From Capsaspora owczarzaki ATCC 30864 (Eukaryota; Opisthokonta; Filasterea), in contig NW_011887292.1 in the NCBI RefSeq assembly GCF_000151315.2, forward strand, positions 2,731,060 through 2,795,059: a DNA stretch of 64,000 nucleotides. Direction: 5' to 3'. The notes below the pieces were generated by a model. That model did not search any database and was not told where the DNA came from. It was given only the letters and a program-made list of their open reading frames with translations. Below are positions 52,094 through 55,088 of the stretch, piece after piece (position 1 is the stretch's first letter; each line of letters opens with the position of its first letter). The translations under genes and the position numbers were made by a program.

Positions 52094-55088
52094 ATGAGCC
52101 TGACAGCGACTGCTGCAGCAACTTCGCCAATCTCACCTGCATCGGCTGTGAGCAGCTCGACTGCGGGCGGCGCAGGGCTGGTGGGCCCTCCGAGACGCCG
52201 GGTGCTGCAGAGCTCGCGGTCTTCGAGCTTTTCGCGCACCACGTCGACGTCGTCGGAGGACGTCACAGCCAACAGCGAGCAGGATTTTCCGTTCGTGTCG
52301 TCCATCGTTTCGACAACCCACCCGCAAGTGCTGTGCTCCAACCTTCCGGAGCACTGGCGTTGCAACAAGTCGCTCCCTGCGCCGTTCGTCGTCTACGCTC
52401 AAGTCAACGTGCCAGACGACACAGAGGTCACCGTTAGTGCGGGCAACGACGAGCATGCCATCGCTGAAATGCGCAACTTTGCGACAGTCATGAGCAATAA
52501 CACGGCCACCTTTTCCGACCTGCGCTTTATGGGTCGCTCGGGCCGTGGCAAGCGGCTGACCGTGTCCATCACCATCCACACGACACCAACCCCGATAGTC
52601 GCACAGCTCGTTGAAGTCATCAAGATGACGGTCGACGGTCCTCGCGACCCGCGTCGGCGAAGGCCGGGCAGCGAAATGATCGCCTCCGCCAGCGAGGATG
52701 ACTTGTCGGATGCCAGTGGGTTTGCCTCAGACCTCGGGTCGGGCACCATGTCCGCGGAGGCCTTTGGCTCCACTGCCTCGACGGGCTCGCCGCTTTCTGG
52801 CTCGTCGCAGCAGCTCGCGCCCGGCCAAACTCCTCCTGCACAGCCCAACTCTGCAGGCACTGGCGGATCGTTCAAGTCTCACCGAACGCGGTCGCTCTCT
52901 ACCACCCTCCGACGCTGTCAGTCAGCCCCTTATATGGCTCCCGAATTTCGAAGGCGTACCGGCAGCGGCACGCTCTTGCCGCACGACAAGCCTTCCTCGC
53001 CACGCGCCAGCAGCAATAATAATGACAGCTTGGATCCGCGCCCCCGTAGCGCTTTCCCTTCCGATCTAGCCGATAGCGAAATGCAGCGATTTCGCTCAGT
53101 TTCGATGGGCTCTTCGGCAGATTCCATGGCCGAGGATGTCTTTTCTCCGCTCGAGTCCCCCCGCTCGCCGAGCGTGGCAGCGCTGTATCATCTACAACGT
53201 ACGAGGGGAATTTCTTGTTTGGATTGTTTCATTTTGCTGCTGTTTTCTCACTTTGTTGCGCTTTTACTGAACACAGATTCGGGAGTTTCCTCTCCATCAC
53301 CCGATCATAGCCTTCTCTCTTCCATGGAGTCGCTTCTTGCACCACTCACAACGCCCGCAGCTCTTAGTTTCAACGCTGCTGATGTTGTCCTGTCGAGTGG
53401 CGCCATGAATCTGGTTCCTGGTAAGACCTGTTGCCCACCCCCCCCCCCTTTTTTTAACAAACAAAAAAAAACTTTAGTTTTCCGTTCGCTTGTGGGCTCA
53501 CTCAACGTTTCGTCTGCTTGCTCCTTCTTTATTGTGTAGACTTCACGCTGGTGAGTCTTTCAGTGTACGAGGCGCCTGAAGGCTCGGCGTGCGTCGCCAC
53601 GATGCGCGTCGGCTCCGCTGGTCAAGTGATGACGGACGTTGGTGTCATGTTTGGAAACGCCATCCCAACGCTGGACAGTGTCAACCTCGGTATCGATGGC
53701 ACAGTCCAGTGTATGTTCAAAGTTCCGTCGCGCTCCGAATGCGGTGCTTCACTCCAGCGAGGCAATCGGTTGGAAGTTGTTGGCTTTTACAAGCTTGCGG
53801 ATCGCGTTTGCTGCTCGTCAAATTCGCTGGGATTTGCGTTCAAGGATGTAGAAGGTACCATGCTCGGGAAACAGCTTTTGCCACCGAGAACAACAATACC
53901 CTGTGTGACATTTCTCATCCTCCTTCTTCTTCTTCTTCTTCCTTTTGTCGTCTTTCCTTCTTGGTTTCTCTTTTCTGTTCTCCACCAACAGGCGCAATCA
54001 CAGAACGCCAACTGAATGCTGTGCTTCACAAGCTGCATTTGAAGAATCAACAAACGCAGCTCGCACACAGTGAGCCCCTTCAGAAGCAAGTTCTCGGCGG
54101 TGGCGCTCCACGAAACCTTCTCCGACAACTTCGACCCCTAGAAGACAACCTGTTTGCACGGAGCCAGGCAGTCTTGCAACAGTGCGGGATGCAGCATACG
54201 CTCAATCCAATCGATTTGCCTATCGGGCCTGACGGGCAAATCTCTGTCAGCAATGTTCAGTCATCGGGGCTCACTGCGCTACACGTTGCCGCCGAGTTTG
54301 GATGGAACAAGTTTGTGACCCAGCTTGTCACCGCGGGCGCTTCCATCAACCAGCGGGACAACTTTGGGAACACCGCCCTGGACTGGGCCTTCATGTCTGA
54401 CCAGCATGTGACTTGCCAACTGCTTCAGTCCGCTGGTGGTTTGTTCAACATGTTTGCTCAACCGAAAGTCACTGACGACCTGCAGGCAAGCTTCCAGCAA
54501 TTCACCTTGTCCAGCCCCGTGCTTGGCCAACTTCCTTCGCCGACAACGCGCATCGCGTCGTCTCGCTCGCCACGTTCGCCTCACCTCGGATCCCCGTTGA
54601 ACTTTGGCGGTCTTTCCCAAAACACTTCCCCTCCAGGACAAGTCCTGTCTGAGATACCCGAGGCGCAGTCCTCTGCACAGCAGTCGTATCAAACTCAGCT
54701 TCAATTTTTGCAGCAACTACAGCACCACCAGCTGGTTGAGCAAGAGCAGCAGCAAAAGCAGCAGCAGCTACTTGTCCAGTTGATGCAGCAACAGCAACCA
54801 CAGCTGCAACTTCAACAGCAAGCGAAGCAGCAAGCAGCCCACCACAATCTTGTGCAACACTTGCTGAGCATGGACATGTCCGCTTCTGCGTCCGGCTCGT
54901 CTTCACGCGCTGTATCGACTTCGTCCCTGTTGTCGAATGCTTCTGCTGTCACCAGTGCGCCGTCCATGCTTCCGTTGGATTTCACCACGACTAGCGATGC
55001 TCATCTCTACTCTGAGCCGGATTTACTCGCCTTGGACCTGCCCTCTCCCAATCCCTCCACGTTGAGCATGGGCGAATTACATTTTTAA
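52094..55088 (+). CDS. RUNX: RUNX-type transcription factor with C-terminal ankyrin repeats
   Basis: Exons 52094-53198, 53277-53420, 53540-53854 and 53992-55088 join in phase to 886 residues. The Runt domain (about 70-195) has CSNLPEHWRCNKSLPAPFVV, NVPDDTEVTVSAGNDEHAIA, FSDLRFMGRSGRGKRLTVSI and KMTVDGPRDPRRRR; the DNA-contact arginines of RUNX1 (in WRCNK, GRSGRGK and DGPREPRR) are kept. A Ser-rich linker follows. Residues ~418-515 (DFTLVSLSVYEAP, GVMFGNAIPTLDSVNLGIDG, LEVVGFYK) look like a beta-sandwich of IPT/TIG type, a tentative reading. Around 609-672 are two ankyrin repeats (GLTALHVAAEFGWNKFVTQL, GNTALDWAFMSDQH). A polyQ region closes the protein; no VWRPY-type tail is seen. An in-frame TGA just upstream fixes the start. 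Confidence 0.92.

What the first reader, a model, noticed from the sequence alone, without database searches (positions are those of the whole stretch)
52094..55088. Runt domain fused to possible IPT-like segment and ankyrin repeats
The gene joins a canonical Runt DNA-binding domain with two ankyrin repeats and, between them, a segment that could be an IPT/TIG fold. Runt and Rel domains share a p53-like Ig fold, and Rel-IPT-ankyrin is the NF-kappaB layout (CAMTA also has TIG-ankyrin). Animal RUNX proteins, as I know them, lack ankyrin repeats. All four exons join in phase across this span, so the fusion is not an artefact of adjacent frames. If real, ankyrin-based self-inhibition or partner binding would be possible.
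Basis: partly seen in the sequence, partly recalled or inferred. Interest (0 to 1): 0.85.

Follow-up and report, generated by a model that had tools for sequence, protein, structure and literature searches.

The report
Runt factor with ankyrin tail
A single-celled relative of animals has a RUNX-type gene switch with an extra ankyrin-repeat tail, and a distant single-celled relative appears to have the same layout, so animal RUNX proteins may be the trimmed-down version.

Summary
The window is Capsaspora owczarzaki; the spliced model equals the public protein CAOG_00880 (886 aa). Pfam finds Runt at 69-188 (E 3.9e-46) and ankyrin at 611-667 (E 9.5e-8), both over cut-off.

New evidence: a second member, P0011 (647 aa), Corallochytrium limacisporum by its EukProt name prefix. 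It has the same order: Runt, long linker, middle segment, further linker, ankyrin pair. Between the two, the ankyrin block (62% identity) is kept better than Runt (47%). Two separate gene models argue against a fusion artefact.

The IPT reading is unproven. Pfam's TIG model matches the Corallochytrium segment below cut-off (12.2 bits, E 0.19) and the Capsaspora segment not at all. Both structure predictions failed.

Best reading: a DNA-binding Runx factor with an old C-terminal partner-docking module that animal Runx lacks. NF-kappaB-style self-inhibition is possible but less likely, with about two repeats. No paper that I searched by term reports Runt plus ankyrin; the key 2011 survey was not held.

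The parts
52094..55088 (+). Whole coding region of CAOG_00880, four exons (52094-53198, 53277-53420, 53540-53854, 53992-55088), 886 aa plus stop
   Evidence: 100% identical to the public protein
52298..52657 (+). Runt DNA-binding domain, residues 69-188
   Evidence: Pfam PF00853 E 3.9e-46; 11 of 11 recalled DNA-contact positions as in human RUNX2
52664..53419 (+). Long Ser/Ala/Pro-rich linker, residues 191-416, with intron 53199-53276 inside; intron 53421-53539 follows just after it
   Evidence: composition and 20% identity (38 of 193) to Corallochytrium
53540..53841 (+). Middle segment, residues 417-517, possible IPT/TIG domain (unproven); the first base of codon 417 is at 53420
   Evidence: related to the Corallochytrium middle segment (1 of 500 shuffles as good); Pfam TIG below cut-off in Corallochytrium only; strands only in a low-confidence model
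53997..54218 (+). Conserved linker, residues 524-597 (motif LHLKxQQxQ), helical only in a low-confidence model
   Evidence: 36% identity (24 of 66) to Corallochytrium; helices 526-545 and 563-585 with pLDDT under 50
54258..54437 (+). Ankyrin-repeat pair, residues 611-670
   Evidence: Pfam Ank_2, Ank; 62% identity (37 of 60) to Corallochytrium
54375..54404 (+). Run ALDWAFMSDQ in the second repeat, residues 650-659
   Evidence: identical in Corallochytrium; LDWAFMSDQ is in 2 of 36 fetched proteins, these two; a DNA pattern slightly wider than WAFMSDQ matches once in the genome, here
54498..55085 (+). Gln/Ser/Leu-rich C-terminal tail, residues 691-886, ending GELHF; no WRPY

Best explanation
CAOG_00880 is a Runx-type transcription factor with an inherited C-terminal module: a middle segment (possibly IPT), a conserved linker (probably helical) and an ankyrin-repeat pair. 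Shown by sequence: intact Runt domain, ankyrin pair, and the same ordered module in the Corallochytrium protein. Inferred: the Runt domain binds the usual Runx DNA site, without need of CBFbeta. The ankyrin pair and the linker before it dock a partner protein through a conserved surface (the ALDWAFMSDQ run), and the middle segment adds a dimer or second protein contact. The module was present in the common ancestor of Filasterea and Corallochytrium and is missing from animal Runx.
For: Runt E 3.9e-46 and ankyrin over cut-off. Same order of parts in P0011. Identity by part: Runt 47%, long linker 20%, middle segment 22%, second linker 36%, ankyrin 62%; an ankyrin block kept better than the DNA-binding domain suggests a specific binding surface. 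Part of that is general ankyrin consensus, but 17 of 38 identical positions (of 63) depart from it, one of them where the consensus has no letter (consensus recalled). DNA-contact positions as in human: 11 of 11 in Capsaspora, 10 of 11 in Corallochytrium (positions recalled). CBFbeta-face positions Y113 and T161 are changed in both (A and Q; P and V), and a CBF_beta model finds nothing in the genome (no positive control). The distribution of Runx motifs in the Capsaspora genome was taken by others as a sign of an old Runx network (PMC10317990, passage citing a 2016 paper).
Against: Only two members are known here, and the species of the second is read from a name prefix. The 10-row Runt tree does not resolve: its best form puts CAOG_00880 with the other Capsaspora Runt at weak support, and the two Runt-ankyrin proteins stand together in 48% of 200 bootstrap trees. 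Runt identities to animals (46-59% over 7 sequences) do not all exceed that to Corallochytrium (47%). The second Capsaspora Runt gene has no ankyrin match in its 638-aa frame, so gain or loss within the family is needed in any case. 8 of 15 recalled CBFbeta-face positions are as in human. No binding, expression or localisation data for this protein. The IPT part is unproven.
Confidence: 0.6

Rival explanations
1. NF-kappaB-like self-inhibition: the C-terminal ankyrin pair folds back on the Runt domain or middle segment and keeps the protein out of the nucleus or off DNA until it is removed or displaced.
For: [quoted passage not shown] The order DNA-binding domain, possible IPT, ankyrin is alike.
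Against: Co-NF-kappaB has five repeats (PMC8677719); here about two are recognisable. No glycine-rich run, and a linker of 226 residues after Runt in Capsaspora.
Confidence: 0.2
2. Mga2/Spt23-like origin: the IPT-ankyrin part is the regulatory half of such a factor, joined to Runt by domain exchange.
For: Capsaspora has an SPT23/MGA2-like gene: DNA-binding domain (E 4.7e-42) and TIG (E 3.8e-12) in one frame, and a weak Ank match (E 0.0048, 17.6 bits, under the cut-off of 21.1) in a frame downstream (locus L021). The Corallochytrium segment aligns weakly to its TIG (16 of 500 shuffles as good).
Against: The Capsaspora segment shows no likeness to that TIG (404 of 500 shuffles as good). No SPT23_MGA2 match in CAOG_00880 at E <= 1.
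Confidence: 0.1
3. Two independent fusions, or gene transfer between lineages, rather than an ancestral architecture.
For: Only two species; unresolved Runt tree; ankyrin repeats are common and mobile (recalled).
Against: Similarity extends over the middle segment, the second linker, the ankyrin pair and a stretch after it, more than a shared generic ankyrin repeat.
Confidence: 0.15
4. Gene-model error: two neighbouring genes, Runt and ankyrin, were joined in annotation.
For: No transcript reads were seen; two of the three junctions lie in or at the edge of the weakly conserved linker.
Against: Splice sites and phase are regular. The same order is in one Corallochytrium model. A local alignment spans the third junction.
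Confidence: 0.04

Closest known systems
Animal RUNX / Runt family (CBF-alpha)
   Same: Runt domain over cut-off; all 11 recalled DNA-contact positions; 59% identity to the human RUNX2 Runt stretch
   Different: Carries a middle segment and ankyrin repeats; no C-terminal WRPY; CBFbeta-face residues Y113 and T161 changed
Second Capsaspora Runx gene (L002, C1:2350835)
   Same: Runt domain E 2.9e-29
   Different: 638-aa frame with no ankyrin match; Runt 41% identical over a stretch cut short at its end
NF-kappaB p100/p105 type, including Co-NF-kappaB (L025)
   Same: Immunoglobulin-like DNA-binding domain (Runt and Rel share a beta-sandwich superfamily: PMC10845976, passage), then a possible IPT, then ankyrin
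   Different: No Rel domain, no glycine-rich run, fewer repeats, long linker after the DNA-binding domain
SPT23/MGA2 (IPT plus ankyrin; signature domains as in PMC11658701, passage)
   Same: DNA-binding domain, then TIG, then ankyrin; in the Capsaspora copy L021 the ankyrin match is single and weak
   Different: Different DNA-binding domain; the TIG is recognisable there and not in CAOG_00880
CAMTA (CG-1, TIG, ankyrin)
   Same: Layout only (recalled)
   Different: No CG-1 match in CAOG_00880 at E <= 1

Membership tests
Runx / Runt family | Runt domain over the curated cut-off | tested here: met
   156.3 bits against 27; 160.7 in the genome scan
Runx / Runt family | DNA-contact residues | tested here: met
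   11 of 11 in Capsaspora, 10 of 11 in Corallochytrium (list recalled; PMC2527000 speaks of 10 functional residues without listing them in the section read)
Runx / Runt family | CBFbeta partner and interface | tested here: inconclusive
   8 of 15 recalled interface positions as in human in Capsaspora; 5 of the 12 that align in Corallochytrium; Y113 and T161 changed in both. No CBF_beta match in the genome, but no positive control rang. The interface also diverges in a sponge (PMC2527000)
Runx / Runt family | C-terminal WRPY (eumetazoans and a homoscleromorph sponge) | tested here: not met
   Ends GELHF. Not needed for membership: Amphimedon Runx also lacks it (PMC2674455, passages)
NF-kappaB | Rel homology domain | tested here: not met
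   No Rel match at E <= 1 in CAOG_00880; neither middle segment matches RHD_dimer at E <= 10 (filters drop most weak matches), while Co-NF-kappaB does at E 1.8e-17
NF-kappaB | About five or more inhibitory ankyrin repeats and a glycine-rich region | tested here: not met
   About two recognisable repeats; at most 4 Gly in any 20 residues
NF-kappaB | Ankyrin part inhibits DNA binding or nuclear entry | not testable with these tools
   Needs an experiment
IPT/TIG domain (segment 417-517) | Pfam TIG over cut-off, or a fold match | tested here: inconclusive
   Corallochytrium 12.2 bits against 20.9, E 0.19; Capsaspora no TIG match. 0 of 19 controls (18 shuffles, 1 reversal) matched TIG. Own profile: 3 of 300 and 10 of 300 shuffles as good; 1 and 13 of 478 real windows as good. 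Small-profile hmmsearch: 48 and 617 of 1000 shuffles as good. hhalign negative. Structure models unusable
SPT23/MGA2 | SPT23_MGA2 DNA-binding domain | tested here: not met
   No match in CAOG_00880 at E <= 1
CAMTA | CG-1 domain | tested here: not met
   No match in CAOG_00880 at E <= 1

The most novel reading that the evidence does not exclude
Runt-IPT-ankyrin is the founding holozoan Runx architecture, a sister layout to NF-kappaB built on another immunoglobulin-like DNA-binding domain. Animal Runx lost the IPT-ankyrin half and took up CBFbeta (and later WRPY/Groucho) as its regulators instead.
Probability: 0.3. Interest if true: 0.8.

Novelty: new variant of a known kind. Interest (0 to 1): 0.62.

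Why it matters
Runx is a master regulator of animal development and was once held to be animal-only (PMC2674455, passages). If its pre-animal form carried an ankyrin regulatory tail, then animal Runx is a stripped form with new partners. That gives a concrete, testable account of how a developmental regulator changed its control at the origin of animals. Capsaspora can be transfected (PMC6001378, title and abstract start in the listing), so the tail can be tested in the cell it belongs to.

Tried and rejected
Structure route: two predictions. One was CAOG_00880 alone (mean pLDDT 38.2). The other was the Corallochytrium middle-to-ankyrin piece with the Capsaspora row (39.2). No fold search was run on them.

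More members: the first protein search scored only the 7990 candidates sharing most words and missed P0011; the second (region 405-690) found it. The third (trimmed two-row alignment) was swamped by generic ankyrin proteins and did not return P0011 either, so it cannot show absence elsewhere. All three limit candidate length to 0.55-1.75 times the query.

IPT by profile: a small TIG profile from 9 Capsaspora matches gave little by hmmsearch (48 of 1000 shuffles as good for Corallochytrium, 617 of 1000 for Capsaspora, 2 of 1000 for the Co-NF-kappaB IPT; one of its 9 rows, L010, was read on the wrong strand, corrected). hhalign gave no support (probability 0.11% for the pair; 0.72% and 0.25% singly), while the Co-NF-kappaB/RelB IPT pair did align to TIG (49.6%). 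A profile-wide alignment gave 3 of 300 and 10 of 300 shuffles as good, 0 of 300 for the Co-NF-kappaB IPT, and 119, 38 and 207 of 300 for three negative controls. Against it: the Corallochytrium segment read backwards scores nearly as high (12.0 against 13.2); 13 of 478 real windows reach the Capsaspora score; and in CAOG_00880 the low-complexity N-terminus scores higher than the segment (13.8 against 7.0). In Pfam an unrelated family fits the Corallochytrium segment as well as TIG does (Pyridoxal_deC, E 0.1), and one control reached E 0.01 with another family. Solved-structure searches with the Corallochytrium segment gave only unrelated proteins at E 0.45 or worse.

Runt tree: unresolved, with long branches. 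The Rel DNA-binding model found nothing in the genome although Co-NF-kappaB is there, so a nil from that scan, CBFbeta included, is weak.

NCBIfam: matches are generic ankyrin likenesses and a few other weak ones, far below their cut-offs; set aside.

Full report
What the sequence shows. The window lies in the Capsaspora owczarzaki genome (G000:C1:2731060-2795059; the organism from P0001). Four exons with GT/AG borders and in-phase junctions give an 886-aa protein with one terminal stop. It is identical to CAOG_00880 as held by NCBI, UniRef and EukProt. Pfam places Runt at 69-188 (E 3.9e-46), Ank_2 at 611-667 (E 9.5e-8) and Ank at 614-645 (E 8.5e-7), all over cut-off, and nothing between Runt and ankyrin at E <= 1.

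A second member. A search with residues 405-690 listed 13 proteins at E <= 10: the query itself, 11 ankyrin-rich proteins without a Runt domain in their listing, and P0011 (E 5.1e-23), a gene model in EukProt named Clim_evm63s172, which I read as Corallochytrium limacisporum; its listed domains are Runt and ankyrin. Pfam confirms Runt at 10-126 (E 2.1e-35) and Ank_2 at 517-583 (E 1e-8) in P0011. Pairwise comparison gives two strong blocks in the same order: residues 59-190 with 44% identity (58 of 132, 2e-33), and 451-689 with 32% identity (84 of 261, 2e-34). Identity over aligned positions by part: Runt 47% (55 of 116), long linker 20% (38 of 193), middle segment 22% (19 of 88), second linker 36% (24 of 66), ankyrin pair 62% (37 of 60). 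The ankyrin pair is the best-kept part. Some of that is general ankyrin consensus (25 and 27 of 63 positions match a recalled consensus), but 17 of 38 identical positions depart from it. It holds a ten-residue identical run, ALDWAFMSDQ; LDWAFMSDQ occurs in 2 of the 36 proteins fetched, these two, and a DNA pattern slightly wider than WAFMSDQ matches once in the Capsaspora genome.

What the Runt part can do. At 11 recalled DNA-contact positions the Capsaspora protein is as human RUNX2 in 11 of 11 and Corallochytrium in 10 of 11 (V170 to A). [quoted passage not shown] At the CBFbeta face, Y113 reads A and P and T161 reads Q and V in the two proteins; over 15 recalled positions 8 are as in human in Capsaspora. 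A CBF_beta model finds no match in the genome, but the same kind of scan also missed the Rel DNA-binding domain, so this nil is weak. Others took the spread of Runx motifs in the Capsaspora genome as a sign of an old Runx and Myc network (PMC10317990, passage; the 2016 source itself is not held).

The disputed segment. The Capsaspora and Corallochytrium middle segments are related: local score 50 against a shuffle mean of 26.8 (s.d. 4.5), 1 of 500 as good. Whether they are IPT/TIG is open. For: Pfam TIG matches the Corallochytrium segment over profile positions 5-82 of 84 with 12.2 bits (cut-off 20.9, E 0.19); none of 19 controls matched TIG; a whole-profile alignment beats most shuffles (3 and 10 of 300 as good; positive control 0 of 300; negatives 38 to 207 of 300). 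Against: no TIG match in Capsaspora, little by hmmsearch, no hhalign support, the reversed Corallochytrium segment scores nearly as well, 13 of 478 real windows reach the Capsaspora score (1 of 478 the Corallochytrium score), and both structure models are unusable. I treat IPT as plausible, not shown.

Comparators in the same genome. Co-NF-kappaB (L025) has RHD_dimer (E 1.8e-17) and ankyrin repeats. Its ankyrin part is inhibitory by experiment (PMC8677719, abstract and passages). An SPT23/MGA2-like gene (L021) has the SPT23_MGA2 DNA-binding domain and a TIG, with a weak Ank match under cut-off in a frame downstream. The only other Runt gene found has a 638-aa frame with Runt and no ankyrin match. 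So Capsaspora may hold three factors with the layout DNA-binding domain, IPT or IPT-like segment, ankyrin, built on three different DNA-binding domains.

How it most likely works. Shown: an intact Runt domain and a conserved ankyrin pair in one protein. Inferred: it binds Runx sites without CBFbeta; the ankyrin pair and the linker before it dock a partner; the middle segment adds a dimer or partner contact. Self-inhibition in the manner of Co-NF-kappaB is possible, but about two repeats and a long linker make it less likely than docking.

Evolution. Capsaspora Runt is 59% identical to human RUNX2 Runt, 46-54% to six insect or nematode ones, and 47% to Corallochytrium. The small tree does not resolve. 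The other nine Runt proteins (eight with insect or nematode names, one unnamed) list Runt alone; that animal Runx at large lacks ankyrin is recalled. The simplest reading is an old Runt-ankyrin gene whose tail is absent in animals. Two separate fusions are not excluded with two species.

Print. Searches for Runx or Runt with ankyrin, Capsaspora, Corallochytrium, Filasterea or unicellular listed no paper whose title or abstract start reports this architecture; not every listed paper was opened. In eleven papers searched by term for ankyrin (PMC6040629, PMC6792448, PMC4739763, PMC10845976, PMC8061703, PMC2674455, PMC2527000, PMC10317990, PMC6478125, PMC4527844, PMC7895527) no passage shown reports ankyrin in a Runx protein. 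Three NF-kappaB papers (PMC8763368, PMC8677719, PMC13042239) do not hold the word Runx in the main text. The 2011 survey of Capsaspora transcription factors is not held, nor are two further papers tried, so prior description cannot be ruled out. The domain combination is visible in the public Pfam listing of CAOG_00880.

Noticed in passing
51920-52029: A (CT)n array of 55 copies ends 64 bases before the ATG of the Runt-ankyrin gene; a shorter CT array (55091-55131) follows the stop codon.
   Followed up: no
L021 (G000:C1:1716500-1724500): Capsaspora has an SPT23/MGA2-like gene: DNA-binding domain E 4.7e-42 and TIG E 3.8e-12, with a weak ankyrin match under cut-off in a frame downstream.
   Followed up: partly
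L020 (G000:C1:1585500-1594500), 4602-5417: A TIG-bearing frame, with an NTPase-like frame further downstream (by reading); gene identity not worked out.
   Followed up: no
G000:C10:546301-552549: Two places 5.7 kb apart with identical translations of paired TIG domains in membrane-protein-like frames, perhaps a recent duplication.
   Followed up: no
55620-56310: Exons that read like a short-chain dehydrogenase start about 530 bases downstream on the same strand (by reading, not searched).
   Followed up: no
57481-57563: tRNA-Leu (aag) on the minus strand.
   Followed up: no
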